Origin: Metallyticus violacea
Lineage: Eukaryota > Arthropoda > Insecta > Mantodea > Metallyticidae
Assembly (NCBI GenBank): GCA_030762175.1
Contig: CM060846.1
Coordinates: 183,760,041 to 183,824,040 of the forward strand
DNA length: 64,000 bases
Direction of reading: 5' to 3'
The stretch's first letter is position 1, and every line of letters starts with the position of its first letter. Shown here piece by piece: positions 786 to 64,000 of this stretch. The notes under the pieces are model-generated. The model was given only the letters and a program-made list of their open reading frames with translations. It searched no databases and had not been told where the DNA came from. The position numbers were made by a program, and so were the translations under genes.

Positions 786-839
<54 letters not shown>

Positions 840-3219: not shown

Positions 3220-3225
3220 TTCCCT

Positions 3226-3530: not shown

Positions 3531-3790
3531 AAAAATATTCACAATGAAATGTTTTCTAAATACTAACACAAAGTATATCTTCGTTGATATTGGTAGTCAT
3601 AAAGAACAGGGAAAGTATTAAGCGATTCGACGTACACTCTTGGATTATATTCATTTCAATCCTATGTTTTGTCCTTACTTTATATATTGATTTGCTATGC
3701 CACTAGCCCTGATACTGAATATGAAGCAAAAATTATATAAGTTAACTGACCTTTATTATTGAGTAAATACAAAATTACATTGCACTTTAA

Positions 3791-4050
3791 ACCGCTAGGG
3801 GTGGCCGAGGTGGTTAAGGCGCGGACTCGTGAGCGGGAGGTCTGGGGCTCGAGTCCCGCCAGGACCATCCTCCCTGACTGAGGTTTCTTCCAGGTTTTCC
3901 TCAGTCCTCATAACTGGAAAATTCCGGGAAGGTACCCTAAACTTAGGCCTGGAACGTTTCCTTCCTTAAAAAAATCATTTCATGTATCACCAGTGTTCAC
4001 CGCCTGTGGTGCCACAGTAGTAAAAACGGGGGTTAAACACCATTAAAAAA
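3791..4050 (+). repeat. SINE-B copy 1, complete, with 12-bp target duplication
   Basis: tRNA-related head (GGTGGCCGAGGTGGTTAAGG, then CTCGAGTCCCG as box B) followed by the family's body: CCTCCCTGACTGAGG, TTAGGCCTGGAACG, CACCGCCTGTGGTGCC and GTTAAACACC. The exact 12-bp direct repeat ATTGCACTTTAA flanks it at 3779-3790 and 4051-4062, so this is a retrotransposed copy with intact ends. At least nine copies of this family lie in the window. Confidence 0.92.
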
Positions 4051-4055
4051 ATTGC

Positions 4056-4503
4056 ACTTTAACCCAAATGTAGACGCTAAGCTACCTAGATCCGAACTTG
4101 CATGCTTCGAATCAGTAGACAATATGCACATATGTTGCACTAAAGAAGTGATTTCTTTCAGTATTATTGCTCAAAATGTTAACCGAGTTTAAATAATAAA
4201 GTAAACTACAAAAATGAAACACAATACATTTTCTTTACTTTGTTACTACACAATAGTACGCTATTTAGCACAGAGAAATAAACAGTTCATAATAAAGATT
4301 ACTAGAGCTTTGACAACAAAAGGATGTTTATCATTGGTGCAATTTAACTGCGTCTTGCAAACTGTATATCTTTAATCAAGCTAGACGTTAGTATAATCAA
4401 GTTGCAAATTTGACTGTATAAAAACAGCAGACATTGAGATGTACCAATTCCTTCCCCTTTCAGAAACCGCACGACCTTGAAACTTTTGGAAGTTTTCGTA
4501 TAT
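4056..4503. other. Spacer between two inverted SINE-B copies; no gene
   Basis: AT-rich sequence without recognisable coding content. The minus-strand open frame 4344-4745 mostly reads through the neighbouring SINE and is spurious. Confidence 0.4.
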
Positions 4504-4781
4504 TTTTTTAATGGTGTTAACGGCCCGTTCTTTCTACTGAGGCACCACAGGCGATGGACACTGATGATATATGAAATGAATGACAAAATGGGAAAGGATT
4601 TTTTTAAAGGAAAGAAATGTTTCAGGCCTAAAATTTGGGTACCTTCCTGGCATTTGCCATTTATGAGGACTGAGGAAAACCTGGAAAAAACCTCAGTCAG
4701 GAAGGACGGTCCTGGTGGGATTCGAATTCCAGACCTCCCGCTCACGAGTCTGCCCCTAAACGACCTCGGCCACTAGAGGCG
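4504..4781 (-). repeat. SINE-B copy 2, with 12-bp target duplication
   Basis: Reverse-oriented SINE-B. The 3' part (reverse complement of GTTAAACACC, CACCGCCTGTGGTGCC) lies at the low-coordinate end and the tRNA head at 4700-4781. Flanked by GTTTTCGTATAT at 4492-4503 and GTTTTCGTGTAT at 4782-4793, a 12-bp duplication with one mismatch. It faces copy 1 across ~450 bp. Confidence 0.9.
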
Positions 4782-5222
4782 GTTTTCGTGTATCTGTGAT
4801 CCTGTGGGTCTGTACTGGCGATGACAATCACTGGAAGAGTTATTTATGCCAGGGAGACCACAGGGGAGTATAGCGCGTCCCGTGATGAAGGATTGTGGCT
4901 CAGGGCAAATGTACCTTAAACGGAATCCTTGGACACTAGTCGAACCCCAGAGTATAAGCCTTACACAGCTGTGCGGCACTCTGTCTGAGTGGACCTTATA
5001 AATTCCTATCTTCTCGTTGGACGTATGCAAATACTTTAATTAAAAAAAAAACCTGAGAATCACATTAATGAACCACCAGCAACAGCAACCAATTCCATCG
5101 ATGAGGAAGCTCTTCTGGAGCAGGCCTAAGGCACGAAACTGACTGTTATCGCTTGTGAGGGGATCTGGGCGAATTAGCCTTTGGATCTCGGTAAAGTTAC
5201 AATTATGACCGTAGCCAAGGAT

Positions 5223-6020
5223 AATCCTAAAGATCCTCCAGATCAACCTCATAAGAAGGCTGCCTTGGCTGTCTTCTGCAAACTTTCAATGAAGAAGGAA
5301 TAGACCTAGCCCTGATTAACAGGGGCCGAATCACAATACTAGACGAATGCCAAGGTAAGTTGACAAATTGCAACAAGAGCAATGGACTTAGAAATTGTGT
5401 TCTTGTTCTCAAGAGAATTCAATGTCTACCTCTTGTAAAAGTTTTCGCTAGTGATATCAACACGGTGAAAATCGACGGCTACAAAGAAGTAGGGAAGAAG
5501 GGCCTGCTACTGAGCACAGTCTATCTCTCCTACGATGGAGGATATCCACCCACCAGGGAACTGGGGTAGTTAGTTGCACATTGCACTCAGAGAGGGGAAC
5601 AGTTCATCTTTGGTTGTGACGCCAACTCTCACCTCGAAATCTGGAGTCGGTCCTGGTAGTCCAGTGGTAACCATACTTGCCTCGTAGACCCAAGATCGCG
5701 GGTTCAATCCCTGCTAGGGTCGATGGATTTTTTCGGGTGTAAAAGTTCTAAGTATGTCTTCCTTCGGAAGGGAAGTAAAGCCGTGGGTTCCGTGTCGTAC
5801 ATTTACGGCACGAAAAAGAACCTCAAGCCTGAAAGAAGAGACTTCTGAGCAAATTTCATCCGCTGTTTCATGCCCTAAATTGAATTGGACGATGATGACC
5901 TGAGATGTTAAAGAACATTCGTAATAAACCAAATCAACAAAACGAAATCTGGGGCAGCAAGGATGTCAATAAAAGAGGTTTTAGATTTTTTGCTCTCGTA
6001 ATCTATACTTACTGTTAATA
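5223..6020 (+). pseudogene. APE-type endonuclease domain, interrupted by SINE-A
   Basis: In ORF2 proteins this domain nicks target DNA. Visible in shifting frames: LRILQINLHKKAAL near 5228-5269 (the start of the domain), EEGIDLALINRGRI around 5294-5335, then STVYLSYDGGYPPTREL around 5515-5565 and FGCDANSHLEIW around 5609-5643, which matches the GDFNAH/GCDANAH catalytic motif of the family. The reading resumes after the SINE with IWGSKDVNKRG near 5947-5979. Several stops and frame changes make it nonfunctional. Confidence 0.8.
5645..5942 (+). repeat. SINE-A copy 1, nested in the endonuclease, exact 10-bp target duplication
   Basis: Contains the complete SINE-A layout: head with TAGTCCAGTGGTAACCA (box A) and GGTTCAATCCC (box B), then the body with TTTTTCGGGTGTAAAA, CCTTCGGAAGGGAAGTAAAG, TTTACGGCACGAAAAAGAAC, and a tail with GATGACCTGAGATGTTAAAG. 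The direct repeat CGAAATCTGG flanks it at 5635-5644 and 5943-5952, and host coding sequence resumes immediately after. Six or seven copies of this family are in the window. Confidence 0.95.
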
Positions 6021-6179
6021 ATCATCTCACATTTTTCAATCGCATAAGGCCGGAAGTTCCTAACATTACTTTTTATATGTAGTACATTAGTACTTTAATT
6101 ACCGATTGGAGGGAACGATGAACTATCTCTTTCTCATGGTTGTATATCCTTTAACGTATATGTAGTTAATAGAGTTACA

Positions 6180-7990
6180 CTCTACAGGAATCCCAGGAAG
6201 TTGTATATGCAGGATCTCTCAAGTAGTATTGGGTACAGTGATAGAAGTAGATGTTTTGATGATATTGACAAGATCGCCTATTTTATCCAAGTGCCAATAG
6301 CTGACAGTTATTGCGATAATAGCCCCATGAAATCACGGGAAAATCCAAGAAAGTGTCATGGTGAACTAAAGGCCTTGAATATAAGAGAGGCAGAGAAACG
6401 CGTCTCTTTAATAAGGGAAAAAAATAATAACTGCGGGTAAAGGGAATATCACATAGCTTCCATGGACTACAATAAAAGTATATGTAAGGCCAAAAGATTT
6501 GGGCAAACATTCTGTCAGAAAATATATAGCCCTTGTAATAAGTCAAATAAACGACAACGGAAAAATATACGATGTAGGAACAATATTTAAGCTACAGAAG
6601 TCTTTAATTTTGACTGAAGAAACAACATTCTCTTTGAAGTTAACTTTCCCGGGTGAAGACAAAATCTGAGAATTCACTGACTACTGTGAATACTCTAACA
6701 TTAAACAACGTAGAAGGACTGGGAACTTGTATGTCAAGTTGTCACAACTCATGGTGTTAAATGGGCAGTTAATAAATTTAGCCCATTTAAGCACCAGGTG
6801 GAGAAGGTATCTTGTTGCAGATAGGACCTTACTCACTTTATATCCTCCTCTTCAATTTCTTATGAGCCGGAATAATCTTAAGTTACATCCCCCAGTCCTG
6901 AAGAGCTACCAGAGTAGTTTTCAGTCCTAAAAGCGGACGTACACCAAAGCTAAGGCGGATCATTCTTGCATCGTCTATTTGATAGGCTATGGAAAGACTG
7001 ATTGAAAGACCATTCGAAAAAGACTTTTGTTAGATACTCCCCTCCATCGAAATCAACAAGCTACCAACAATCTTAGTCCTATGTAAGAGCGCTACTGTTC
7101 ATTCAGCAGACTGAAGGACTCGATGGCCAGCATCGAAATAGCCCTAGGGGCTTTTTAGACATATAGGCTATTTTAAAAAACACGTATTATAAGTCTATTG
7201 TTTTGGCTGCATAGAAAAATTTGGTCAATGTCACTCTTTGCAGTTAAATAACTTCCAAGCTCAGTAGCAGAAACATTACTGTTAGCCTTCTTGGAGAAAT
7301 GAAAATAATCATCGCCACGGAGTATTGCCCACAAGAAAACATTTCTCCCTCCTACTCAGGAGTACCGTGGAGGACAGTCTGCTTAAAGATACGACACAGG
7401 AGAAATATTACTACAAGGCTATGGGAATGACATAGCACTATTTATTTTGGGGAAATTTACCAATTCAGTCTCCGATGTGATGTACTGTAGACTGAGAAAA
7501 GTTTACAGCTGGTGCATGCAGACGGGTCTTACTATTAATCCTAGCAAAACATTGTTGTTCCTTTTACTAATAGGAGATTTCTTAAAAGACTAGGAATTTT
7601 AAAACTAGGCAATTAAATCATCGAATATTCTGAGACAGTTAAAGTTCTAGGCCTTATACCGGATAAGAAACTGATTTGGTATTTTCAATTGACAACATTC
7701 CCCGTAGAGACAGGTGGTTTCTGGTATACCACCAAACGCACTATCGGAACAACCTAGGGCCTAAAGCCACACATTAGCACTGGATATATGTTGCAATGGT
7801 CAGCTGCAGATATCTTACGGCGTCATTGTTTGATGGCGGAAAACTTTATAAACTATTATAACAGATAGGTTTACCAAGCTCCAGAGATTACCATGTCTCT
7901 GTGTTTACGGGGGTCTTAAGAAGTACTCCAAACATTGCACTAGAGACTTTCCTAGGTTTCTCTCACATGGATATCTATTTATAGTGGATG
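6180..7990 (+). pseudogene. ORF2 linker and reverse transcriptase, heavily decayed
   Basis: Linker fragments such as YMQDLSSSIGY near 6210 and YNKSICKAKRFGQTFCQ near 6464-6514 match the region before the RT in R1/LOA-type ORF2 proteins. RT fragments follow: HGVKWAVNKFSPFK around 6750-6791, KTFVRYSPPSK around 7019-7051, and a piece resembling the palm motif region around 7425-7460 followed by WCMQTGLTINPSKTLL at about 7511-7558. The catalytic Asp pair is not preserved in a readable frame. The call rests on order and short matches. Confidence 0.6.
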
Positions 7991-8600
7991 TAAGACTAAC
8001 TGCATATCGCTTGGAGCAGACAGGAAATTGGAGAAGCAGATGTGCAAAAACAAATAGATATACCTTCATAGTACTGAATATCAGATCCGACCCCATGAAT
8101 ACTCAATATTGTTTTCTCCCTACATTTAAGGTAACTCTCGCATCTGGAGAAGACTGGATGAAAGGAACTACACCTGAAAATGGATGTGACCAAAATGTGT
8201 GGTACACCGATGGATCCAGTATAGGGGATACAACTGGGTGCAAGGTTATATGGCTCATTTCCAAAGACAGATTAATAGCGTATGTCTTGAGAAATATTCC
8301 ACAGTTTTTCAGGCAGAAGTGGTGTCCTGAACTGTGTTCTTAAAAGACCTGAGAAAGGTTACCATGGTAAACGAATTCTCATTCTCACAGAGAGCCAAAG
8401 TGTTTTAAAAGCATTTTTTCCAACCGGGTAAAATCTAAACTGGTATGCAAAAGTGAAAATGCTCTGACTGCCCTGGCTTCTCGCAACAAGCTTGAACTGC
8501 GGTGCGTGCCAGGGCATAGGGCGTTTATAGAAATCAAAAAGGCAGATTATTTGGCCACAGAAGTTAATGATATACCCATTTTGGGGCTGAACCCACAGTT
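7984..8600 (+). pseudogene. RNase H domain of the non-LTR ORF2
   Basis: The frame 7984-8343 contains VWYTDGSSIGDTTGC (about 8198-8242), the first catalytic Asp motif of RNase H in ORF2 proteins. In other frames downstream there are LTESQSVLKAF (around 8384-8416; the catalytic DSQ is changed to ESQ) and LRCVPGHRAFIEIKKADYLA (around 8498-8557; the family has VPGH..I.GNE.AD.LA). Frameshifts separate the parts. Confidence 0.75.
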
Positions 8601-8734
8601 GAAATCAGCACACGAAGTGCTAAGACCGTAGTAAAAACATGGATTGGGGAAAAACATCAACTTAGGTTGCAAACCTATCCTGAACAAAAACAAGTTAGGA
8701 AATCGTTCATTGGCCCAAGCAACACTCATATCTC

Positions 8735-9016
8735 CTAAAATTGAACAGAAGAGTAATAAGGAAAGTAGTAACGTTAATTACTGAACATAGTCACTTCAGC
8801 AAACATCTACGTAAAGTGGGACTGTGTAAGGATGAATCCACTTGTATAATGTGCAAAAAGGATGAGGAGATTATTGCGCATGTTGTTTTTATTTCCCCAT
8901 TCTTGGTAAGAAAGGGACTTGCTCTTTCTACAACCAGGGAAAAATTGGGAACGGATGCTGACATTGGAACGAAAATATTTCAACTTCATCAAAGAACAGG
9001 TTTTAGGAAACAGTAA
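8735..9016 (+). pseudogene. C-terminal Cys/His segment of the non-LTR ORF2
   Basis: Reads LNRRVIRKVVTLITEHSH, HLRKVGLCKDESTCIMCKKD and EEIIAHVVF, the CxxC...H zinc-binding tail common after RNase H in these elements (family form: LTGHSHLSKHL...C..C...EE...H...C). One Cys is lost. It closes the 5.2-9.2 kb element. Confidence 0.72.
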
Positions 9017-9215
9017 AACCGTCTCTTTCTCTGGGGATTGCATAATAATTATTATAGGATGAATGCGGTAGGTCAACCAAACTCCAACAAACCCTCGTTA
9101 TCCATCCATCCATCCTTCCATCATCCTACAAAGAAGTCCGCAACCAGTTATCTAATGACTTCCTTCCGAGAGTCTCAAACTTATGGCTAAAAGACTTAAT
9201 TTTTATAATGTTATC

Positions 9216-9793
9216 AAGTTTAGTCACACAATAATTTTGTTGCATTAGGCCCGACCAATTTGTATGAAAATTGTTATTATTTATCTTTGCATGTACGATT
9301 TCAATAGAAAATCGATTTTACATGTGAAAATTGCATAACATTTCTCAGACTACTCCTACAATAAAACGCCTGTGCCATGCCAAAAAACGCATATTTCTGC
9401 TAAAAATTACACAAAAATTTCGACGCTCTTGATCATAAAAGTTATACATAATTCAGAATCCTATCTACATTATTTTCCATTTAAAACTTAATAGTGCATG
9501 AATTCAGTATAAACTGTACCAAATCGAACAGCGACGTTGATTATTTTTTTATCTGTATCATATGCTTGAATACTACATAGTAGTAGAAAAGCCTGGAACG
9601 AATGGTGTTTAATAATAATCCAAAATGCTTATGTATGTATATATATGCATAATAATCATATATATATATATATATATATATGACTATTATGCACACCCAC
9701 ATATCAGGTGAATCACGTGCCGGTGTTTTTTTTTTTTTTTTTCGCATTTATGCACCACGCAAAATGACATAAGCGCCTTAGGTCTTCTTTACT

Positions 9794-9827
<34 letters not shown>

Positions 9828-9843
9828 GCACGCACACACAATC
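9216..9843. repeat. Microsatellite-rich spacer
   Basis: No coding content recognised. Holds (TA)n at about 9659-9681, T(n) at about 9727-9742 and (CT)n followed by a short (CA)-rich run at about 9795-9840. The R1-like element starts directly after the last run. Confidence 0.7.
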
Positions 9844-10611
9844 ACATTGAACACTAATGACCTGCTAAATAAGAACCAATTTGCGTACACTCCGCAAACC
9901 GGAACAACTGACGCAATATTAACAGTGAAACACTTTATGGAAGAAGCTTTGAGAAACAAGCAACATATAGCTATGATTAGCTTGGATGTTCAAGGTGCTT
10001 TTGATGCGGTTTTGTGACCCAGTATTCTTAAGTCACTGAAGGATTTTCTATGTCCCAAGAACCTTTACCTATTAACAAAGAGTTATTTTAGAGGGAGAAG
10101 AAGCATGCTGTCAGCAGGCAGTATAGGAATAGAAAGAATCGTGAGCAAAGGATGCCCGCAAGGATCTTGTTGTGGACCTGGGTTGTGGAATATCCACTAT
10201 GATTCATTATTAAATCTTTGCTACAAACATTGCACAAAGGTGGTTTCTTTTGCAGACGATGTTGTTGTTTTGATTAGGGGAGGAAACAAACTAGAAATTG
10301 AAAACTACGCCAATATAGAAATGTTAAAGATCTCAAAATGGGCTACAAACAACAAAATAATATTCAATGAACAAAAATCGCAGGTTATATACATATCGAG
10401 GAGGAAATCCAGCACAAGCCAACAGTTAAGCATTTACTTAAATAACAGCAAAGTAGTGCAAGTTAAAACTATAAAATACCTTGCAGTGATTTTTGACAAT
10501 AGGCTGAAATTTAATCAGCACATAGACTATGTAACCGAGAAATGTACCATACTTATACACTCTCTATCCAGAACTGCCAAAATAAAATGGGGCTACGATC
10601 TGATGTGCTGA
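9844..10611 (+). pseudogene. R1-like reverse transcriptase, one internal stop
   Basis: The frame reads QFAYTPQTGTTDAILTVK, SLDVQGAFDAVL (RT motif A region), then a TGA stop at 10015-10017. It continues in the same frame with GCPQGSCCGPGLWNIHYDSL (the B region typical of the R1 clade), VVSFADDVVVL (the catalytic FADD) and VKTIKYLAVIFDNRLKFNQH (thumb start). The frame closes at 10611, and the reading continues in another frame from about 10580. R1-clade affinity comes from the GCPQGSCCGP motif and the linked RNase H. Confidence 0.85.
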
Positions 10612-11843
10612 GAATAATATACAATGGAGCCACTCTGCCCCTTCTTTCTTACGGGACACCTGTCTGGATAGACGCTATACAGCGGACTTACAATGCAAGG
10701 AAACTGAGAAGAGTACAAAGAATTATAAACATCAAAATTGCCAAGGCGTTTAGGACAACATCAAACGAAGCTCTCTGTATTATTACAGGTATAATTTCAG
10801 TAACAATAGCACTCAAAGAAATCGCCAAATTATACAACTTCACAAGAGGAATCGAGAGAAGACCAATCATAAATGGAAGACAAGCGGTAGACAGTGAAAC
10901 ACCGTACAGGGAATGGCCTCACCCTGCTGATATACCTAAAATAGTGGAGAAACAAAATGACAAAGAGTATACATTAAAGATATACACTGATGGCAGCAAA
11001 AGTGAGGCAGGTGTGGGGGCAGGAATAATAATGTATATTAATAATATACCAGTTCATCAACTACGGTATAAGCTGCACCAAAAATGCTCAAATAATCAAG
11101 CCGAGCAGTTCGCCATTTTGAGAGCCCTGGAACAGTTGGAAAATATAGACAATGCAACCTTCAACAAACGAACAGCGGCAATGCACACGGATAGTCGAAT
11201 TACATTAGGTTTAATAACAACCACACAAAACATGGTAACCTCTGTGAAAGAATAAGGAAGAAGTTAAAATCACTCCAACAAGAACTGGGAAATACATTTT
11301 ACTTGGGTTAAAGCACACAACGGCAATGAAGGAAATGAAATAGCAGATCGATTCGCTAAAGAAGCAGCGAAAAGCAAGGACCTGCCAGTGGATTATCAAC
11401 TCATCCCAAAATGTGAAGTGAGGAATGAATTAAGAGAAGAAAGTCAGCAACTATGGGAAACAGAGTGGCAAATGACAACGAACGGAGCGATTACATAATC
11501 CTATTTTCCAACTGTAGCTAAAAGGCTAAAAACCAACATCCTTCTAAGCCCCAATCTTACAGCGATCCTCTCAGGACAGGGGAAATTTGGAGCCTACTTT
11601 CATCGCTTCAAAATAGCAGAGAACCCATCATGTGTATGTCAGGAGGGTATACAAACGGTGAAACGCATTTTGTGGGACTGCAAATTTTTTAAGAAAGAGC
11701 GAGAAATATTTCGGAAAGATGTAGCAAAAGTAGCTAGGCGATGGCCAATAGACAATAGTGAACTTGTTCTAAAATATAATAAACAGTTTAAAACTTTTGT
11801 AAACAGTATAAATTTTGACAGTTTTCAAATTAACACAAATTGA
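10580..11843 (+). pseudogene. R1-like ORF2 C-terminal part: connection, RNase H, Cys-rich tail
   Basis: The frame 10542-11255 carries the connection region (LPLLSYGTPVWIDAI) and RNase H: LKIYTDGSKSEAGVGAGI (first Asp), SNNQAEQFAILRALEQL (catalytic Glu) and AAMHTDSRITLGLI (third Asp). After a frameshift near 11250 the reading resumes with HFTWVKAHNGNEGNEIAD (fourth motif) around 11298-11350. It ends with FHRFKIAENPSCVCQEG and the frame 11658-11843, ending KTFVNSINFDSFQ. At least two frameshifts separate the parts. Confidence 0.85.
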
Positions 11844-12054
11844 CTCAATAGGATAGGAAATGTGGTGACTGAGAATGATAATGTAAAAGCATTCAAATAT
11901 AACCAATTTAGGCAATCTTCAAATATGATTAGGTTAGAATAACAATGAAACAGTGTTCAAAAAGAGTATTAAGGATAACATGTAACAATGAAATGATAGC
12001 AATGCATGTAGTATTAGTAATTATTATAGTAATGGAGCATGCAGTAAATAAAGA

Positions 12055-12125
12055 AGATAAAAAAACACACACCCACACCCAAACCCACACCCACCCACCA
12101 CACACACACCCACACACAGATATAT
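12055..12125. repeat. ACACCC/CA-rich microsatellite
   Basis: An imperfect (CA)/(CCCACA) run at about 12064-12118 followed by a short (TA) run. The open frames on both strands across it are low-complexity artefacts. Confidence 0.8.
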
Positions 12126-12664
12126 ATAGAAGACTGCTTCAAAACTCAGTAAATAATTGGCTTAAGGGACAGAAGAAACTCGTGGTATAAAACCCATTCC
12201 ATAACATCGTAGTCTCACACTGAGAACTGCATCGGCTTTTTACATTTTATAAACTTTTATTCTACTGTATACATTCTTACCTACTCCATGGAAACTTCCA
12301 TTGAACGAGCCACCTATCATATGGAACAAATATCAAAATTATTGAAAAGAAAATGTCGGATCTATGCAAAGTAGAATGTCATAGGCCACAACCACTTTAA
12401 AACACGGTTAAATAATGGATATTATACAGTCATATGGATGTTAAATTAGTTATTAATTCATCTCTGGCATAATCTACGACGCACAACTTTTGTACGAAAG
12501 GCGCAATAACTTGCGCTAATTTAATATTGTTAAAATTACAAAAGAAGCTTAAAAACAAACGAAAAAGTTATAGTATCCAAGTAAAGCTTCGAGGCGAGAG
12601 CAGAATTCCAACCTGCTCATAATCAGATAGCATTTTGGTTTAATAGACGCTTGTTACCAAGTTT

Positions 12665-12745
12665 TGAGTGGTCGAGCGGAATTCATACGTTACGTTCAGT
12701 GCTATATTCTGAGAACTCAGGTTCGAATCTTTGGTAGAAGGTGGA
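12665..12745 (+). repeat. tRNA-like SINE head relic
   Basis: A box A-like GAGTGGTCGAGCGG near 12665 and a box B-like AGGTTCGAATCT near 12720 at tRNA-like spacing. No body of a family seen elsewhere in the window follows. It may be a tRNA pseudogene or an old SINE. Confidence 0.4.
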
Positions 12746-13165
12746 TTTTTTTACCCTTTATTTTGCTTTTCCAACAATGATGTAATGTTACGAAACAAAA
12801 ATGTTTATGTTAACATTATAAATAAATAACGTAAAACGGACGCGAACGCTTCATGCCTGTTGTTGGCACATATATAATGAATACGGTAACAAATTCATAG
12901 TCCGCAGGTTCATTTTTAACATCGGTATGTTGCAGTATACAAGAACTTCTCTACAACAGCATGCTCAAATATGCGTGAACCAAACAGGATGCTAGTTTGA
13001 GCATTTGTTTCCTTAATTAAGTGCTTTTTCAGCTATTTCTTTTTCCTTACTTTATCCCTACTTTATCCCCTTTAGCTCATCATAGTAATTACGGTTAATA
13101 AACGACAAACATATAAAATAGACAAATGAACCAAGAGTAAAACAGAAACAAAATGAAAAGAGAAT

Positions 13166-13245
13166 GCCTTACAGGATTTGAACATACGCAAATCCGAGCG
13201 AATTCATGAGAGCTCGATGGCTAGACCAATGAGCCACAGGAAGCT
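13166..13245 (-). repeat. tRNA-like SINE head relic
   Basis: On the minus strand, TGGCTCATTGGTCTAGCCA (box A-like) is followed at tRNA-like spacing by GTTCAAATCC (box B-like). The acceptor-like ends do not pair convincingly, so a SINE head is more likely than a tRNA gene. Confidence 0.42.
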
Positions 13246-14831
13246 TTTTGTGAACCTCTCTGTACAACGAAACATTTCCGTATCACGCTGTTTTCAAGTC
13301 AACAAAAAAGTAACATTTTTAAGCTTTTGGCACCTTCTTAGCATTCCCACAACATTTCATCAATGATACTACATAGATAGGCACAAGAACGTTTAAATGG
13401 ATTAGAAAACTCAGATACAAAAGAAATTGTTGTTTCACATAAATGGCTTCAAGCGGGTTTTCAGACACTGCTTGATCTAAATCCCCCATTGCTTCTCTGG
13501 TAGCAAGAAATGGAGAGATCAAAAGATGTGCGCAATGTGGTAATGAGGTGTGTAAGACATAGGTGATTACACAGATTTCGGAAATAACGGTGACGAAAAA
13601 TATCTAAAAATATTGCATTATAAACTTATTTCAAATAGGTAAAAACCAAATGGTTAACACGACAGCGATTTCATGCATTATTCTGTCCTTCAGGACCACG
13701 TTTATCTGAAGCCATAAGCTAAACTATAAAATTATGAGTTTTTCATCATCTTAGGAATAAAATTATTGAAGAGCGAGACTGTTGTTGCTGCTGATGAGCC
13801 AACACGTTAGCATATTCTACATGCTGATTCTGAAAAGTATTACTGTGCTGGTATCACGCGAACGGAGCCGGAAATTTATATCTGAGCTAAAAAGCTGAGA
13901 GTCAATCAATTAAACTTTACAGCAATACTCCATGAAGTAAGTAACATATGGCGCATTTTAAAATTAACAGGGAGCGAAGTGGTCCCACTTGTAAACGTCC
14001 AAATCAAGCACAATGATTAATGTCCAATATAAAAGGTGAACTTTTCTTTTACTGCTTGTGTAATGATATTTCCTTTTTCATAATAACGGGTAGAAAGAAG
14101 GGAACTGGACCATGTGATTCAACCAAATTTGGCACATTAAAATATTCATTAACAAAGTACACTATCGCATTGATGTTCTTTTTAATTTTACTGGGTGCCC
14201 ATAGCATGTTAATCTTAATTTCAGAATAATACTCTTTCTTCACATCTCCTACCTATAAAATATCCTATATTTAAATTTTGTGTAGAATTTCAGAAAAAAA
14301 TGGGAATGAAATTATATAGATTAAGCAAGTTTCCTCTTAAGAATATATAGCATCATAAGGAAACAAATTACAACATAAGTTGATGTTTTTCCCCAATCCA
14401 TGTTATTACCGCAAACACATCACCTTTTTAATTAACCGTATATAATAATTTATACTATACGATGTACCAGAATTGCCGTAATTTTAAAGTTATACCCGCG
14501 TATTCTTTCATGTCAGGCATGCCAAATTGTTTGAATTTTGTAGGGGTTTTAGGAAAGGATAAAATTAAACGTTATGTAAGTACTTTTAATTTATTTCATT
14601 TTCTCTGTAATATTTCCATTGCCGAATATGCTACATATCTAATATTCAATCGATGCACAGATATTCATATATGTTCATTTACTACTCTACTTGTGTACCT
14701 ACATTAAATATGTTTTCTTTTAGCTGTTAGGGATTCTGGGCTGCTGAGTTTGCTTTCAGTTCACATGGGTAAAGTGTTTATCCAATGACAGTACACAAAA
14801 AGAAACATTTACGACAAGGAATACATATGAA

Positions 14832-14834
<3 letters not shown>

Positions 14835-14882
<48 letters not shown>
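14835..14882. repeat. (AT)n microsatellite
   Basis: About 24 AT units, immediately left of the minus-strand mariner end. Confidence 0.95.
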
Positions 14883-14885
<3 letters not shown>

Positions 14886-14892
14886 TGGTATC

Positions 14893-16204
14893 CAGAATAT
14901 TCGGGACTGGTGCTGCCATTTGGTCAAAAACTTACTTTGAGACTAATGACCGCCGTAACCCTTGAAGTAGTTCCCTTCCACACGTATACACCAGTCTCAG
15001 CAATTCTGCCATTTTTCAAGTGCATCTTTGAAGTCATGTTCTTTGAGAGTGTTTAGCACTCTCTTCTTAAATCCTCTCAGTTGTGTCGAACCGACGTCCG
15101 TTCAACTTGATTTTCAGTTTGGGGAATACAGCGAAGTCGCAAGGTGTCAAATCTGGCTAGTACGGTGGTTGGGGACAACCGTCATGTTGTTTTTCGTCAA
15201 AAAGCATCTGGTGAACAAGGAATTGTGACGGCGTATTATCGTAATGCAGCAGGCAGTTCCCTTGTCCCTAAGGTTCGGACCGTCGTCTCCGCCCATTTTC
15301 ACGGAGCCGTCGCAAAACGTCACAGTAGTAAGTGGAATTCACTACTTGATTTGGTGGGACGAATTCTTTGTGCACAATCCCCTTGGTATCGAAGAAAACG
15401 AGAAGCACGCTCTTGACTTTGCTCTTCACTTGCCTCTCTTTTTTGATCTTGGTGAGTTCGAGCTCTTCCACTGGAAGGATTGTTGTTTTGTATCAGGGTC
15501 ATAAGCGTACACCCAGCTCTCGTCGCCGGTGATGACCCTGGACAAAAAGGTTGGGTCATCGGATACGGCCTGACGAAGCTCCGTGGAAACTTCAACACGC
15601 TGCGCCTTCTGATCAGTATCAGGATCCTTGACACAAATTTTGACGCGACAAGATGCATGCCCAATTCTTCATTAAAAATGTATTGGCATGCCCCATAACC
15701 AATTCCCACTTTATGAGTAAGGTCTTCAATGGTTCGACGTCGATCCTCACGTACGAGGTGTTCAACTTTGGCAGCAATGTCAGGCGTTGTGCAGCTGACG
15801 AACCTACCGGTGTGAGCACCGTCTTCAATAGCTGTACGACCGGCCCTGAACCGAGCATGCCACTCAAACACACGTTAATTTAACCTTCTTCCCTCAACAC
15901 TTTTTAGGATTATCAGGTACGGCTAATGCTTTGTCCCCCCAAATACTTGATGAATCATTGCGAGGGTCACCGTAGCATTTTTACCGAGATTTGCACAGTA
16001 TTTGATGCACACTCTCTGTTCATACTTGGATCCATCGTAAAATCGCCACACACTACACATAGAGTATCATGAAATGTACTATAGAATCTCAGCACATATG
16101 GGACTTTAAACACTGATTCATCAGATGTGCTAGTGTTGCCACCTAGCGGTACAAAACTCTACTGCAACTACTGTCAAGATGGCAGCACCAGTCCCGAATA
16201 TGTA
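14893..16204 (-). mobile_element. Second mariner, minus strand, with inverted ends
   Basis: The left end carries ATATTCGGGACTGGTGCTGC (about 14898-14917) and the right end its reverse complement (about 16181-16201), so the terminal inverted repeats are at least 22 bp. The interval of ~1.3 kb is normal for mariner. The coding strand is minus, opposite to the 1.4-kb mariner, and the two differ in sequence, so they are separate families. Confidence 0.87.
15000..16040 (-). pseudogene. mariner transposase, frameshifted
   Basis: The longest frame (15871-15320) starts with the HTH region: FEWHARFRAGRTAIEDGAHT, then CTTPDIAAKVEHLVREDRRR and HKVGIGYGACQYIFNEELGM. After frameshifts the catalytic core is read in pieces: VIT-type sequence and a Tyr/Asp region around 15480-15540, and in the frame 15471-15268 VLLVFFDTKGIVHKEFVPPN and STYYCDVLRRLREN, matching the FFD.KGI.H.EFVP and TYY...L.RLR signatures of mariner. 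The region toward 15000 is degenerate. Not functional. Confidence 0.88.
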
Positions 16205-57151: not shown

Positions 57152-58485
57152 ACAGAACGTTCAAACTTGCCTCTGAGTTGAGCAATATGCGATGGCCAGC
57201 ATAGTTTTCTATCAAAGATAAAATCAAGGAATCTAACCTCGTCTGCGAAAGCAACAGGATCTGGGCCAACATCGAGAGACGGTGATGAATAATCCTTATG
57301 GCGCCAGAAATTCATACAGACGGTCTTCTCAGCGGAGAATCGGAACCCGTGATTTATACTCCAAGCGTAAAGGCGGTCGAGACAGCATTGGAGGCGGCGT
57401 TCCAAGAGACAAGTTCTCCGGGAGGAAAGAAAGATGGCAAAATCGTCAACAAACAACGACGATTGGATCCCTGGCGGTAAACACTCAGCAATGGAATTGA
57501 TGGCGATGGCAAATGGTGTGCAACTAAGTACCGAGCCCTGAGGTATACCGTTCTCTTGAATAAAATCAGAAGATAAAACTGAACCCACGCGAACGTTAAA
57601 TACCCGGTCTGTCATAAACTCCCGAATGAAAATTGACATCCGATCAAATATACGCCATTCATGAAGCGTACGAAGGATACCGCCCCTCCAACAGGTATCG
57701 TAAGCCTTCTCCAAATCAAAAAAGACAGCAAAAGTTTGGCACTTTCTCGCAAATCCGTCCATTATATGGGTCGAAAGAGACGCAAGATGGTCGATGGGTG
57801 AGCGATGACGACGAAAACCGCACTGTATGTTCGTCAATAGGTGCCTCGACTCCAACCACCACATAAGCCGTCCATTAATCATGCGTTCCATCACCTTGCA
57901 GACTCAATTGGTGAGGGTAACTGGACGGCAGCTGGAAGGAAGATGTGGGTCCTTTCCAGGTTTCGGAATAGGAATGACGGTGGCCACTCGCCATGCGCAT
58001 GGAAACGTGCCATCACACCAAATACGATTGAAGTTTTGGAGTAAGTAAGCCTTTCCTTCGGTCGATAAGTTCTGCAGCATAGCAACGTGAATACCGTCTG
58101 GCCATGGAGCGCAATGGCGAGAGTAAGAGAGTGCTTGCTCCAATTCCCTGGACGTAAACGGGACATTATAGCACTCCTGATTGTCGGAGGCAAATCCTCT
58201 GTTATCAACATGCTGTTTAATCATGCGAAACGCAGGAGGGTAATTGTCAGAGCTGGAAAACTGAGCGAAAGTGCGACCTAAGGTATTTGCCATATCTGAA
58301 GGGAAAGTAAGCACACGATGTGATACCTTAAGACCGGGTATTGACCTAAAACCAGGTTTGCCTGCAACACGGCGTAGTTTATCCCAAACCAGACCTGAAG
58401 GCGTTGATCGGTTGAAGGATGAGGCGAAAGCATTCCAGGACGCCTTCTTGCTATCTTTGATAACTCGACGGCATTTTGCGCGCAA
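56977..58485 (-). pseudogene. ORF2 reverse transcriptase of the I-like element
   Basis: The frame 58485-57904 holds the linker and RT start (LEQALSYSRHCAPWPDGIHV; then FPCAWRVATVIPIPKPGKDP). A TGA stop at about 57901-57903 interrupts it. The same frame continues 57894-56977: GFRRHRSPIDHLASL, FFDLEKAYDTCWRGGIL (motif A), NGIPQGSVLSCTPFAIAINS (motif B), SLFVDDFAIFLSS (catalytic FVDD) and FRFSAEKTVCMNFWR. A frameshift near 57100-57150 moves the reading into the next frame. Apart from the stop and shift the RT motifs are intact. Confidence 0.92.
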
Positions 58486-58535
58486 TTGTTTTTACCGGAT
58501 CATGTTCTCAGACGTAGGGTGGCGACGAAAAGCTC

Positions 58536-59441
58536 TCAAGGCACCTCGGCGTGCACACAATCCGTCCCGGCATTCGTCGGTCCACCAAGGAACCGGACAG
58601 TGTCGGGGTATGAAGACGACCGGGGAATAGCCTGATTGGCGGCAGCAATAAGAACCGTGTTTAGGTGTTCGATCATAACGTCAGTAGACGGATAAGCACA
58701 CCCTGAAAACAGGACAAGAGAACGGAAAAGATTCCAATTTGCTTGGTCTACAAGCCACTTAGGCGCGCGCTGGAAATGTACTTGGGAAGACAGGATACGA
58801 ATGTAACACGGGAAGTGATAACTAGAGTACGAATCAGAGAAAACGTGCCAGATAAAGTGCAAATAAAGCGAGGCGGAACAGAAAGATAGGTCCAGATGGG
58901 AAAAAGCTGTGAGTACTGTTGAGAGAAAAGTGGGTTCACCTGTGTTCAGTAGAGTAAGATTGTGGCGATCTATAAAATCAGCCACCAAGCTACCTCTCGC
59001 ACAATCTACGGAGGAGCCCCATAAGGGATGGTGCGCATTGAAGTCCCCCAAAAGCAGTATAGGGGGCGGCAGCTGGGATAGAAGGTGATCCAGATCTACC
59101 GCTGTGACAGCAACGGATGGAGATAGGTAAATGTTACAGACTGTGAAAGTAATGCCAGAAAAGGAAACCGTTGCCATTGCAGACTGTAGGGTAGTTTCCA
59201 GGCACAGAGAATTATACACGTCGTCTCTGATTAATATTAAAACTCCGCCATGCGCGGGAGTGCCATCTTCGGGAGGAAGATCGAATCTTACCGAAGAGTA
59301 TCCGCGAATATTGAATGTATTCTGAGGTCGAAGTTTAGTCTCCTGGAGGCATAAAAGCGAAGTTTCAGTCGATCGTAAAAGCAACTCGAAGTCTTGTCTC
59401 CGACTGCGGAGCCGACGTACATTCCACGAAAGGATAGCCAT
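58536..59441 (-). pseudogene. ORF2 N-terminal APE endonuclease of the I-like element
   Basis: The start codon is chosen at 59441 (MAILSWNVRRLRSRRQDFEL) because all I-like ORF2 proteins begin close to this WN motif, although the frame is open upstream to 59564. Catalytic motifs in order: WNVR, LLCLQETKLRP (Glu), ILLLGDFNAHHPLWGSS (Asp/Asn), THL-like HLDLSFC, and the last motif, which is SSYHF where the family has S.DHF, so the Asp is lost. The frame closes at 58536 and RT continues in another frame from 58485. Nicking activity is unlikely. Confidence 0.9.
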
Positions 59442-59520
59442 TGTTAAAATTAGGTAAAAGAAATAAAAAAGGGACCACCTTACTTTTTGGTCGGACCAGG
59501 ACGAATCAACCGTCCTTTCT

Positions 59521-60820
59521 TCAAGCGCGTGGCACTTGGTGTGGTTTGTCAGGAGCTGGTACATCCTGTTTCATAACATCCTCGGAAGGAGGGCTATCCC
59601 TCTGGGAAGAATCAGCCGATTCCAACACTTGGAATCGGTTTGAGATGGAGAGAGGCGGTGACGGTGACCGCCTAGCGGGCATGCACCCAAAGTCATTGTC
59701 GGAGCTCGACCTCCGAGGAGTTGAGGGGCTTTGATTCTTCTGTCTGTTCTTCCCTTCAGTAGTGGACGATTTTAAGAAGTCAGTCTTTGTGGACACTGTC
59801 TTAAATTTGATTGGGCTAGCGGCAAAGACGACTGGATGGGCATTGACAGAGCGTTTTGCAGAGGCAGGCACAGTAGAACTTGTAGCAGCTTTGGAGAACA
59901 CCAAGTCACATGTTTGCGTGCTACGGTCACGCCGTGAAATTGCGGTGGCTGCAATAGAGCTATGTACCCGACTTGGGTACCGTAGGTTGATAGGACTGAT
60001 ATCGTTTGCGGGCCTCTGAGAAGGAAAGTTTCTCCCTAACACGGATTACCTGGATGCTACGTTCCTCACGATAACGAGGGTAGCCACGGGACGTGGCCGG
60101 GTGGGCACCACGGCAGTTCACAGAAAGGGGAGCTGATGGACATGCTCCCTCGTGACTCTCTTGTGCGCATGTAGCACAAACCGATTTTGGGCTCTTGCAT
60201 GATAACCGTGTGTGGCCGAAACGTTGGCACTGGAAGCATCGCAGAGGACTAGGAACATACGGGCGGTCTGTTATCACCTCGTATCCTGCCCGGATCTTCT
60301 GCGGCATCTCAACCCTATTAAAGGTGAGGAATAATGTATTTGTTGGTTGTACCTCGCCATCCCTTTTCGCTTGAACACGATAAACGGAGGTCAAATTTTG
60401 ATCTGCCAAATAGCCCTGAATTTCTTCATCTGACATGCCGTCGAGTACAGAGGTAGTAATTACTCCTCGGGAACAATTGTGGGTTCGATGCGCTTCAACT
60501 CCGATCGGGTACCCGTGTAGCAAAATAGCCTTAAGAAGGGTATTGGTTTGAGAGACACCTGTCGTCTCAACTAATAAGGCACCATTGCGTAGACGCGCGC
60601 ATGATTTTACAGGGCCAGATATGCAGTCCAATACTTTGTGGTTAATAAAAGGGTTTACACGGGTAAAAGACTGACCTTCCTCTGTTCGGTTAATAACTAG
60701 GAAATCAGGGAGTGAGACCTTAGTAACCCCTTTCACGTCCACTCTCTTCCTCTTTGTATTAAGATGGAGATTATCTTGTACTATAGCGGATTCATCCTCC
60801 ACCATTACATCTGTCTCCAA
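59521..60820 (-). pseudogene. ORF1 (gag-like, zinc knuckles) of the I-like element, one frameshift
   Basis: ORF1 proteins of I elements bind the element RNA and form the ribonucleoprotein particle. The first frame (60820-59960, 286 codons) starts METDVMVEDESAIVQDN, has an RRM-like middle part (CARLRNGALLVETTG) and then zinc knuckles CFQCQRFGHTRLSC and CATCAQESHEGAC. A third knuckle region (VNCRGAHPATSRGYP) lacks cysteines expected by the family. VREKLSFSEARKRYQ follows, after which the frame shifts between about 60040 and 59975. The tail continues in the frame 60042-59521 with a Ser/Pro-rich region (STPRRSSSDNDF, ARRSPSPPLS). Without the shift it would be about 430 codons. Confidence 0.88.
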
Positions 60821-61239: not shown

Positions 61240-62205
61240 AGTAGCTATATTATCTAATTAGTCGAATTGATGACACGTTTGTGTTTTTAGTTAATAGCTG
61301 ATTTGGTTCGAAGAATATGTCTGAATTGAATTCTTTGTTAGCATTTAGATATTCTTTTTGGTCTTTAAAACAATATGTGGTTTGTGTCGCAGGAATGAAA
61401 ACTGTGTCCCAAGCAGAGAATATTTTAATACACTTCGTTTTAATTCCTGAACTAATTGAATGTCTATATAATACAAGATTTAGCCTACATATCTCTCTGA
61501 GCAGAAATTTTGTTTTGTGTAATGAGAACTGTTGGGCTAAACATTTTGGGTGATATATTTAAGTCCCTCTTCGTTTTGCTGTGTTGTTGTACTCCACAAG
61601 CATAAAATCCCTTTATTTTGTCCCAAAACATGCTTAACAATTAGGTGGATAACTAACTTTGATGGTACATGGAATAATGTGATTTCGGGAGGTGGGAAGA
61701 ACTTGCTGGAAATCTACAGAAAGAAATTAAGCTATTTATATATTTTGACAATGTCACCGCTTTTAGACGTACATAGTTTTGCATGCCTGTTCGGTTTTGA
61801 ATAATGCTCATATTGTCTTGTTTTTTTTTCTTTGTTTTTTTTTTTCATCGTCCTCTTGCAGACATAGGACAATTTCTGGTTCGCAATATTAACATTTAAT
61901 ACCTTTTCGGACCCCTCATTTAAGTTCATATCATGAAATACTAACTGGAAGTATGGATTTCTGCTATCCGTGGAAATGCTATATAAATTTTCGAAATTGA
62001 TAAATCGGAGGGAGGGGGAGGACATTGCTTTTACGTTTCATTGTGGGAATATTGGCAATGCTGTCGAGGAAAACTAGCAATATTATTTCTAACTTGCTAT
62101 TACATAATGATATTAATATAATAGGTCAGTAGTATACATCCCTTTTCCGATGATTAAATTGATATGCTGATATCAAAAGTGGAGGATGTGGATGAGGTGG
62201 TTTGG
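61240..62205. other. No gene recognised between the I-like element and the viral block
   Basis: AT-rich. Open frames at 61317-61553 and 61550-61804 do not resemble polymerase, integrase, protease or capsid proteins. The minus frame 61732-62025 is low-complexity in part. The left boundary of the virus-derived region is not evident. Confidence 0.4.
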
Positions 62206-62224
62206 TGGGGGACGTTGATAGTTG

Positions 62225-62854
62225 TTGCTGGTGGAGGTGATGGGAGTGGGGGTGACGATGTTGCTGGTGGGGGCTGGAGTGATGAGAGGGGTATACAAAT
62301 TGTTATCAAAACCTCAATTTCAATCGTCGATCAAGCATTCAATTTAAATCATCGGAAAATGGGTATTTTATTATACATAAATTAACACATATTTAAAGTA
62401 ACGGGGGGTGTTCACACACAAAAATAGCAAATGATATCGTAATTAAGACAGATACCAACATACTTTAGCCCTTCGGCCACTGGGTTTCCAATTCCGCACT
62501 GATCATAGACTTCTCCCCCTCGCACCTGTGTCATTTCCAATAGGGGTGGTTGGTGGTGGAGGTGATGGTGAGGGTGACGATGTTGCTGGTGGAGGGCTGG
62601 AGTGATAAGCGGGGTGTACGAATTGCTATCAAAATCTCAATTTAAATCGTCGATCAAGCATTCAATTTAAATCACCGGGAAAATGGGTATATTTATTATA
62701 GATAAATCAAATACACGTTTAATGTAACGGGGGAGTTCAAACAAAAATACGCAAATGATATTGTAAATAAGACAGATTCCAACATACCTTGGCCCTTCCG
62801 CCACTGGGTTTCCAGTTCCCCACTGACTCCCTCGCACCTGCGTATTCACAATAG
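62225..62854 (+). repeat. Two-copy ~315-bp direct repeat abutting the polymerase fragment
   Basis: Unit 1 about 62225-62545, unit 2 about 62546-62854, offset 311-322 bp because of small indels. Shared landmarks: GGTGACGATGTTGCTGGTGG (62251 and 62573), CGTCGATCAAGCATTCAATT, AAATGGGTAT, GGCCACTGGGTTTCCA/GCCACTGGGTTTCCAG and CTCGCACCTG, with similar ends (CAATAGG). The start of each is GGTGGAGG-rich. No reading frame is conserved between units, so it looks non-coding. Unit 2 ends within ~10 bp of the polymerase open frame. Confidence 0.88.
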
Positions 62855-62858
62855 GATA

Positions 62859-63290
62859 TTGTCTTCTCTGTTAGCCACGTACAGACCGGGGGAATGGATG
62901 TCTCCCAAGGATCCAATTGTAGGGTGTATGACAGTTGATATGGAAAAGTACGGTGATGGTGCGTATATTTGCAGATTTGCATCTATAGGCCCAAAAAGTT
63001 ACACCATAGAGGCTAAGTGTGGGGATAAGAAGCACTATGTCTGTAAAATTAAAGGCATCACCCTCAACTCGGGGAATTTGCAAAATGTAAACGCCGACGT
63101 TATCAGGAACATCGTACTGAGGGATAATTCAATGTCTGTAGTACTTGAAAGCACACAGACATCCAGGAAAATTCTAGGAACTGTGGTAACTGAGTCTTCA
63201 GTGAAAACCTATAGGATGGTGGTCAACAGGGGGTGCAGAGTAAAAACTTTGATTCCTACCCTTACGGGTATAAAAGGCGTGTCTAAATGA
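62859..63290 (+). pseudogene. C-terminal fragment of a protein-primed family B DNA polymerase (Polinton/adintovirus-like)
   Basis: Family B protein-primed polymerases copy the genomes of Polintons/Mavericks, adintoviruses and adenoviruses. Only the last ~143 codons are in frame here, opening with a non-ATG codon, so the start is not a true start. Recognisable blocks: YRPGEW (8-13), then MEKYGDGAYICRFASIGPKS (28-47), with GPKSY at 44-48 being the conserved K-x-Y-type block after the palm, and VCKIKGITLNSGN (61-73), the family's K.KGI.LN. Exonuclease motifs, terminal-protein region and the palm motifs (SLYPS, DTDS) are absent upstream, where the ~315-bp repeat lies. The stop at 63288-63290 overlaps the ATPase start. 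Either a 5'-truncated remnant or a gene broken by the repeat. Confidence 0.82.
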
Positions 63291-63934
63291 CAGCTCATCA
63301 GTCACCAACAATGTCTACTAACCAACACTTTAAATTTAGTTTCCCATGCACCATGCTAATTGCAGGTCCTTCGCGGTGCGGTAAGTCTACATTTGTGAAA
63401 AATTTAATTACCACTGCAGGATGGATGTTTAAAAGACCCATGAGAAAAGTGTTGTGGTGTCATCCGTCAGAATATTTTACCAAACCAAGCCCGTTCTTCG
63501 ACTCCCATGCAGGAATACCAGATTTGGAGACTGTTAACGAGGGAGATTTAGTTATTTTAGATGATTTAATGTACGAAGAAGATGGGGAAAAGGTTTCAAA
63601 GTTTTTCACTAGAGATTCACATCACAAACGCTTTGGGATTATTTACATTTTACAAAACGTGTTTCCACAAGGAAAGAGATTTCGAACTATATCTATAAAT
63701 GCTAACTACATTGTCGTGTTTAAAAACAATAGAGATAAAATGCAAACTGATAAGCTTTGTCAACAGATCGAGCCAAAGAACTCTAAGTTTCTGTTAGAGG
63801 CATTTGAAAAGGCTACTGAAAACCCGCACGGTTATCTAGTGTTGGATTCCACTCAGTACACGCCAAATCATTACAGGTATCGAACCGGTGTCCTACCAGG
63901 AGAAACGCCTTCTGATTTTATACGCAATTGTTGA
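63287..63934 (+). CDS. A32-like (FtsK/HerA-type) DNA-packaging ATPase, Polinton/adintovirus-like
   Basis: An intact 215-codon frame. Such ATPases pump the genome into the capsid in Polintons, adintoviruses and related double jelly-roll viruses. Walker A is GPSRCGKST (27-35), Walker B is DLVILDDLM (87-95), and the third motif HHKRFGIIYILQN (112-124) carries the Gln-Asn sensor typical of this group. The length is normal for the family. The first ATG (63287) overlaps the polymerase stop as ATGA; a second ATG at 63311 (Met9) is an alternative. No internal stops, all motifs intact. A 3' signal AATAAA follows at 63978-63983. It may be part of an integrated or recently active viral element continuing beyond the window. 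Confidence 0.92.
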   Translation: MTAHQSPTMSTNQHFKFSFPCTMLIAGPSRCGKSTFVKNLITTAGWMFKRPMRKVLWCHPSEYFTKPSPFFDSHAGIPDLETVNEGDLVILDDLMYEEDGEKVSKFFTRDSHHKRFGIIYILQNVFPQGKRFRTISINANYIVVFKNNRDKMQTDKLCQQIEPKNSKFLLEAFEKATENPHGYLVLDSTQYTPNHYRYRTGVLPGETPSDFIRNC

Positions 63935-64000
63935 CCACTTTTCTGAAGGTTTAATTTGAGTGCTCCTCGAGAGTTTAAATAAACGAGCAACGATCACACT
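63935..64000 (+). promoter_or_regulatory. Short 3' flank of the ATPase with AATAAA
   Basis: GAGTTTAAATAAACGAGCAA near 63971-63990 contains AATAAA at 63978-63983, 44 bp after the stop. It could be a polyadenylation signal or a TATA-like element for a following gene. The window ends before this can be decided. Confidence 0.5.

What the first reader, a model, noticed from the sequence alone, without database searches (positions are those of the whole stretch)
62859..64000. Virus-like cassette: polymerase C-terminus overlapping an intact packaging ATPase
The sequence shows GPKSY and KIKGITLN blocks of a protein-primed PolB followed directly by an ATPase with GPSRCGKST, DLVILDDLM and a QN sensor. 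Known Polintons and adintoviruses carry both genes. The ATPase is uninterrupted in a window where every other mobile gene is broken, which suggests recent insertion, ongoing activity or constraint.
Basis: partly seen in the sequence, partly recalled or inferred. Interest (0 to 1): 0.9.

Follow-up and report, generated by a model that had tools for sequence, protein, structure and literature searches.

The report
Decayed Polinton from an exploding family
The piece is the left end of an old, broken virus-like transposon (a Polinton) in an insect-like genome; close relatives in the same genome have multiplied so recently that many are identical in the parts compared, and a few look like mirror-image by-products of a replicating linear virus genome.

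Summary
In detail: window 62859-63290 holds the end of a protein-primed PolB, and 63287-63934 an open 215-aa packaging-type ATPase. Reading rightward shows integrase, penton-like, capsid-like and adenain-like protease genes, then a right terminus and a 6-bp target duplication: a Polinton/Maverick from window 62128 to C17:183837618. This copy is old and dead: PolB is lost up to its catalytic motif, nine other genes are frame-broken, a LINE sits inside. The PolB-ATPase overlap is a by-product of a frameshift, and the open ATPase is what chance allows (P about 0.3). The family is not dead. All 98 capsid hits scored (of 2675 candidates) are identical over 429 aa; 72 of the 98 sit with a long PolB frame and the ATPase at the expected spacing. 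Copies A and B differ at 1 of about 9,420 bases in the body. 12 of 12 copies have perfect 6-bp target duplications. Eight copies look mirror-image or composite; three were mapped, and all five with both ends read have one perfect 6-bp duplication around the whole unit. So they were rearranged before integration, as fold-back replication of a free linear genome predicts. The element is a new member of a known kind; the integrated snap-back genomes are the surprise.

The parts
62122..62127 (.). left target-site duplication TAGGTC; the right one at L020:3579-3584 (C17:183837619-183837624) reads TGGGTC
   Evidence: direct reading; 5 of 6 bases agree
62128..64000 (+). left part of one Polinton copy; it continues to C17:183837618 (L009 whole, L020:1-3578), about 15.45 kb including a LINE of about 6 kb
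   Evidence: terminus AGTAGTATA as in the burst copies; mapping of copy B pieces
62128..62866 (+). left terminal-repeat region, about 67-75% like that of the burst copies over most aligned pieces, with an internal duplication at a spacing of about 323 bases (62218-62502 and 62540-62826)
62866..62867 (.). junction of an internal deletion joining the terminal region to the PolB 3' part just after the catalytic DTDS motif; not seen in the 10 upstream pieces compared (9 other copies: L002 and L011 are one copy)
62859..63290 (+). PolB C-terminal fragment without the catalytic motif, with a private frameshift near its end
63287..63934 (+). packaging-type P-loop ATPase, open frame, 215 aa

Best explanation
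Shown: the window holds the left end of an old, decayed Polinton/Maverick with terminal repeats, a 6-bp target duplication (one mismatch) and the usual gene set in order (PolB, ATPase, two small ORFs, chromodomain integrase, penton-like, pX-like, capsid-like, protease, accessory ORFs). A sister lineage in the same genome has very recently amplified to at least about a hundred near-identical copies. Inferred mechanism: an integrated copy expresses PolB, which copies the element as a free linear molecule primed by a protein at its AGTAGT ends and displaces one strand. The integrase inserts such linear molecules with a 6-bp stagger. Errors of strand-displacement replication (a displaced strand folding back and priming on itself, or a template jump) make mirror-image and internal-deletion genomes, and the integrase inserts these too. 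The window copy, whose terminal region is joined to the end of PolB, may be an old deletion genome of that kind or may have lost the piece after insertion. Packaging into particles by the ATPase, capsid proteins and protease is inferred from gene content only.
For: Gene content of copy B: DNA_pol_B_2 2e-50, rve 5.5e-14, Chromo 5.5e-9; protease against African swine fever virus S273R 4.9e-5; integrase against foamy virus integrase 9.5e-11. Termini: 12 of 12 copies with perfect 6-bp duplications and AGTAGT ends. One copy has an extra AGT at one end, and an internal terminus in P3 has extra ACT units, as slippage of a protein-primed start would give (inference). Recency: A against B, 1 mismatch in the 9,423-base body alignment, none in three smaller pieces of 1,995, 578 and 579 bases, 4 in the 2,350-base right end; 0 substitutions in 6,498 aligned bases of a right-end inner piece over 11 copies against B; 98 of 98 scored capsid hits identical. 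Snap-back: P1 and P2 are unequal-armed inverted copies with the right terminus at both ends. In pieces of at least 1,000 bases, substitutions against B are shared by both arms, 3 of 3 in P1 and 7 of 7 in P2, none in one arm only. Three of these are common to P1 and P2 and so may be private to B; the four others of P2 show that its two arms came from one molecule. Outer 6-bp duplications are perfect for P1, P2, P3, C8:44.82 Mb and C5:10.95 Mb, 5 of 5 with both ends read.
Against: No reads, RNA or particles were seen. Capsid-like and penton-like genes have no convincing profile match, and the AlphaFold2 models of ATPase (pLDDT 42.5) and capsid candidate (33.5) are unusable. The ATPase has no hit to a packaging ATPase of known structure. 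Not all copies are near-identical: P2 has 10 substitutions against B, and one copy on C2 has 24 in 5,001 bases. Terminal repeats of single copies differ more (16 of 7,460) than the inner pieces of different copies, so those differences cannot be read as age. The genome searches score only the best candidates, which favours identical copies. Only three of the eight rearranged copies were mapped inside.
Confidence: 0.85

Rival explanations
1. The ATPase of the window copy is kept by host or element selection (domesticated), which is why it alone is open.
For: Open frame of 215 aa in a broken element; fewer private nonsynonymous changes than neutral, one-sided P 0.018.
Against: Chance alone leaves it open with P 0.30. 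The private ratio of 0.42 is looser than the dN/dS of 0.15-0.17 between copy B and seven older copies. Open relatives abound, so nothing needs this copy.
Confidence: 0.04
2. The mirror-image copies arose after integration, by host inverted duplication or nested insertion.
For: Inverted duplications of host DNA do happen; no reads were examined.
Against: Five of five with both ends read have one perfect 6-bp duplication around the whole unit and an element terminus at both outer ends. A later duplication would mirror host flank or leave the second end without terminus and duplication.
Confidence: 0.07
3. The mirror copies are assembly errors from fold-back chimeric reads.
For: Such chimeras are known from long-read libraries (recalled); no reads available here.
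Against: The two outer flanks of each of the five differ apart from the 6-bp duplication, whereas a fold-back chimera repeats one flank. Axes differ between P1 and P2 and the arms are unequal.
Confidence: 0.08
4. The identical copies reflect gene conversion or assembly duplication, not a recent burst.
For: Some older copies lie in near-identical pairs on C17, e.g. 344.21 and 344.26 Mb. Two of the 12 copies (C2:57.7 and C10:9.5 Mb) sit at the same place of a similar flanking sequence.
Against: The 12 copies whose ends were read have 12 different target duplications and lie on 10 scaffolds; the two with similar flanks differ in their duplications by a base present on both sides. Gene conversion would have to homogenise spacer and termini on all scaffolds.
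Confidence: 0.05

Closest known systems
Polinton/Maverick elements (polintoviruses), as defined in PMC4028283 (passages seen) and for vertebrates in PMC8097293 (passages seen)
   Same: pPolB, RVE integrase, packaging-type ATPase, cysteine protease, candidate capsid genes, terminal inverted repeats, 6-bp target duplication, about 15 kb
   Different: Vertebrate copies are mostly few and decayed, at most 38 intact in one genome in that paper, with intactness judged on all eight genes and both ends. Here 72 of 98 scored capsid hits have a PolB frame of at least 1411 aa, the ATPase and the capsid gene together, a looser test. Integrated mirror-image genomes were not met in the passages or listings seen.
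Adeno-associated virus snap-back and deletion genomes (PMC8235507, passages seen)
   Same: Symmetric and asymmetric self-complementary genomes with the same end twice, one class holding the capsid region head to head; deletion genomes with both ends and a missing middle
   Different: AAV is a parvovirus with another way of starting replication (recalled), and those genomes were seen in virus particles; here they are seen integrated, within a 6-bp target duplication
Stick-insect Mavericks (PMC5691397, one passage seen)
   Different: No element structure, dating or rearranged copies in the passage seen; that this host is a stick insect is my guess from its COI protein

Membership tests
[quoted passage not shown]
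   DNA_pol_B_2 2e-50 in copy B; an open frame of 1432 aa is the commonest, 81 of the 137 rows typed. The window copy keeps only the end, without DTDS.
Polinton/Maverick | retroviral-type (RVE) integrase | tested here: met
   rve 5.5e-14 and Chromo 5.5e-9; foamy virus integrase 9.5e-11; broken pieces in the window copy
Polinton/Maverick | FtsK-like genome packaging ATPase | tested here: inconclusive
   Walker-type motifs and position beside PolB fit; profiles give only weak hits, mostly to the P-loop; no structure hit; model unusable
Polinton/Maverick | adenovirus-like cysteine protease | tested here: met
   S273R of African swine fever virus 4.9e-5, residues 44-135 aligned; no Pfam hit
Polinton/Maverick | double jelly-roll major capsid protein | tested here: inconclusive
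   429-aa protein in the expected place, assigned by position and recalled likeness; no profile hit; model pLDDT 33.5
Polinton/Maverick | penton (minor capsid) protein | tested here: inconclusive
   About 345-aa frame upstream of the capsid candidate; no supporting profile; assigned by position and recalled likeness
[quoted passage not shown]
   Repeats of about 650 bases in most copies read; 12 of 12 duplications perfect in the burst copies; 5 of 6 bases in the window copy
Polinton/Maverick | replication as a free linear protein-capped genome | not testable with these tools
   Inferred from mirror-image copies; no DNA from outside chromosomes was available
Adintovirus (proposed animal virus family) | virions; criteria of the defining paper | not tested
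   The defining paper is not held; no particles or reads

The most novel reading that the evidence does not exclude
The genome carries a natural record of a Polinton replicating as a free linear protein-primed genome in an animal germ line within roughly the last ten to hundred thousand generations: full genomes, deletion genomes and one-ended snap-back genomes of one lineage, all inserted by the same integrase, much like the defective-genome population of a DNA virus. On this reading the family is, or very recently was, an active virus-like agent, and its defective genomes may compete with it.
Probability: 0.65. Interest if true: 0.8.

Novelty: new member of a known kind. Interest (0 to 1): 0.6.

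Why it matters
Whether Polintons of animals still live as viruses, and whether they replicate outside the chromosome, is open: one paper says that their particles have not been observed (PMC8097293, start of abstract as listed). A family with about a hundred near-identical copies and integrated snap-back genomes points to a living animal in which free linear genomes, defective genomes, transcripts, small RNAs and particles can simply be looked for. The mirror copies are also a general signature that can be sought in any genome, to tell elements that replicate as free linear DNA from cut-and-paste elements.

Tried and rejected
Rejected: a conserved PolB-ATPase overlap (by-product of a frameshift); constraint on the ATPase; a shared deletion lineage (the window's junction is in none of the 10 upstream pieces, from 9 other copies, compared); age from terminal-repeat divergence (repeats carry tandem units and differ more than the insides).

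Led nowhere: relatives in viral contigs for ATPase, capsid candidate and PolB (none confirmed); PHROGs; structure models (no fold search was made with them); search of solved structures with the ATPase and capsid alignments and with the acidic ORF; exact-pattern and integrase counts over the genome (not completed).

In one search pieces under 1,000 bases and insertions or deletions were not compared.

Full report
What was checked. The window lies on C17 (392.6 Mb, the largest scaffold met) of a 2.32-Gb genome, at 183760041-183824040. A mitochondrial contig (C35) has ND2 followed by COI, which reads without stops under the invertebrate mitochondrial code. By eye and from memory the COI looks like that of a stick insect or close relative; this was not tested.

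What the element is. Reading to the right gives, in order, small ORFs, an integrase with chromodomain in broken pieces, a penton-like ORF in pieces, a pX-like ORF, a LINE insertion of about 6 kb with a duplication of about 14 bases (13 agree, by eye), a capsid-like gene in pieces, a protease-like gene in pieces and accessory ORFs, ending in ACTACT at L020:3578. The left terminus AGTAGTATA starts at window 62128. The 6-base flanks are TAGGTC and TGGGTC. Of the 12 genes compared, only the ATPase is full-length and unbroken; the pX-like frame aligns in one piece over 137 of 139 residues.

Is the open ATPase meaningful? The other genes of this copy carry 13 frame breaks by my count, so 1.2 are expected in the ATPase, with P(none) 0.30. 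Between copy B and seven older copies dN/dS is 0.15-0.17, so the protein was under selection while the elements moved; changes private to the window copy give a ratio of 0.42. This fits an element that moved under selection and has been decaying since.

The family. The ATPase is at 150 scored places of 1841 candidates; 102 of the rows share one score, presumably one protein. All 98 scored capsid hits of 2675 candidates are identical over 429 aa, and 72 of these 98 have a long PolB frame and the ATPase at the expected spacing. These searches score the best candidates only: they give lower bounds and favour identical copies. Copies A and B differ at 1 base in a 9,423-base alignment of the body and at 4 in the 2,350-base right end; three smaller pieces show none. 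In a right-end inner piece 11 copies show no substitution against B over 6,498 aligned bases. Others differ more: P2 has 10 substitutions against B in the pieces compared, and one copy on C2 has 24 in 5,001 bases. At a recalled insect rate of about 3e-9 per site and generation, a divergence of 1e-4 to 5e-4 means some 20,000 to 80,000 generations; this is rough. Twelve of twelve copies on ten scaffolds have perfect and different 6-bp target duplications, with 45 of 72 bases G or C against 38% G+C in the flanks.

Gene assignments. In copy B: PolB (DNA_pol_B_2 2e-50), integrase (rve 5.5e-14; Chromo 5.5e-9), protease (S273R, 4.9e-5), integrase against foamy virus integrase (9.5e-11). Capsid-like, penton-like and pX-like names rest on order and on recalled likeness; the profiles give no support and the models are unusable. 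Gene content and a size of about 15 kb agree with the description of Polintons in PMC4028283 (passages seen).

Mirror-image copies. Two capsid pairs lie head to head on C13. Mapped against copy B (element coordinates 1-14929), P1 (C13:87463041-87476169) is 14929 to 8717 followed by 8156 to 14929. P2 (C13:97007141-97022240) is 14929 to 8981 followed by 5787 to 14929. Both ends are the right terminus and the arms are unequal. Within the shared arm, in pieces of at least 1,000 bases, every substitution against B is present in both arms (3 of 3 and 7 of 7; none in one arm only). Three are common to P1 and P2 and may be private to B, so P1 shows only that its arms agree; the four others of P2 are marks of one molecule seen in both its arms. 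P3 (C2:111648443-111663220) joins 1-2525 to 8510-14929 and then runs 5755 to 1 inverted, so that the left terminus is at both ends. A right-end piece gave 40 scored hits of 711 candidates, with two opposed pairs (C8:44.82 Mb, C6:113.83 Mb) and one lone reversed end beside a capsid gene (C3:8.14 Mb). A left-end piece gave 40 full-length hits of 596 candidates, with three opposed pairs (C5:74.30 Mb, C5:10.95 Mb, and P3). So eight rearranged copies were met; P1, P2 and P3 were mapped inside, the other five are inferred from opposed ends. Both outer ends were read for five (P1, P2, P3, C8:44.82, C5:10.95), and all five have a perfect 6-bp duplication around the whole unit (AACCTG, GAGCTA, TACGTT, TGCCAG, GTGCTC). 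For C6:113.83 and C5:74.30 only one end was caught, and C3:8.14 was not read.

Reading of it. One duplication around the whole mirror unit means that the unit was made before the integrase inserted it. Unequal arms that are copies of one molecule are what a displaced single strand gives when it folds back, primes on itself and copies out to its own end. This needs a free linear genome and strand displacement, as protein-primed replication provides. The extra AGT at one end of one copy, the extra ACT units at the inner terminus of P3 and the AGTAGT ends fit a start that slips by one triplet, as is recalled for adenovirus. AAV populations contain the same set: symmetric and asymmetric snap-back genomes and middle-deletion genomes (PMC8235507, passages). 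The window copy, a terminal region joined to the end of PolB, may be an old deletion genome or may have lost the piece in place; this was not decided.

Literature. Mavericks in vertebrates are usually few, with at most 38 intact copies in one genome (PMC8097293, passages). In two stick insects Maverick repeats are abundant (PMC5691397, one passage). Polinton-like viruses of Oxyrrhis also show copies with mostly identical capsid proteins (PMC12721341, passages), so recent spread of this kind is not unique. Two searches were aimed at mirror-image Polintons; their listings (titles and starts of abstracts) show no report of them, nor do the broader listings. These cover open-licence papers only. 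The Vsr-like stretch in PolB falls under a remark that Polinton PolBs hold diverse endonuclease insertions (PMC11071308, passage); the search for Polinton with 'Vsr endonuclease' gave no paper.

Verdict. The finding in the window is an ordinary, dead Polinton copy. What makes it worth following is the family: very young, many copies with core genes open together, and carrying integrated snap-back genomes that point to free linear replication.

Noticed in passing
L018:1507-1794 (PolB of copy B, residues 503-598 of the L018 part): A Vsr-like endonuclease stretch (phmmer 0.0014) lies between the first DNA_pol_B_2 stretch (279-472) and the DTDS motif (923); the window copy has lost that region.
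   Followed up: partly
L017:9242-9410 (PolB of copy B, near its start): A run of 7-residue units; the commonest PolB frame lengths in the genome differ in steps of 7 residues, a possible fast-changing marker for the copies' family tree.
   Followed up: no
window 57904-60820 and L009:3164-9218: Two LINE copies of similar sequence (by eye) on the - strand, one just left of the element and one inside it.
   Followed up: no
G000 scaffold C17: 19 of the 26 ATPase rows ranked above the burst group (window copy included) lie on C17, which is 17% of the genome; some are segmental duplicates, and the list is biased because the query came from C17.
   Followed up: no
L027/L037 (C2:57.7 Mb) and L030/L040 (C10:9.5 Mb): Two of the 12 copies read are inserted at the same place of a similar flanking sequence, with duplications GAGAAC and GAGGAC; together with the G+C-rich duplications this hints at a target preference.
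   Followed up: no
L014:7365-8008 (copy A, left end): Copy A starts with a partial terminal repeat, then 68 bases of PolB inverted, then a fresh terminal repeat: another scar of a template jump.
   Followed up: partly
L024 and L034 (copy at C17:65.7 Mb): Terminal repeat match of 990 bases with 1 mismatch instead of about 650, so repeat length varies between copies.
   Followed up: no
L019:598-1131 (copy B): Accessory ORF of about 177 aa with a run of acidic residues near its end and no convincing profile or structure match; decayed pieces of it are in the window copy.
   Followed up: partly
G000:C35: The mitochondrial COI appears twice at a 15,478-base spacing, so the contig looks like a dimer of the mitochondrial genome.
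   Followed up: no
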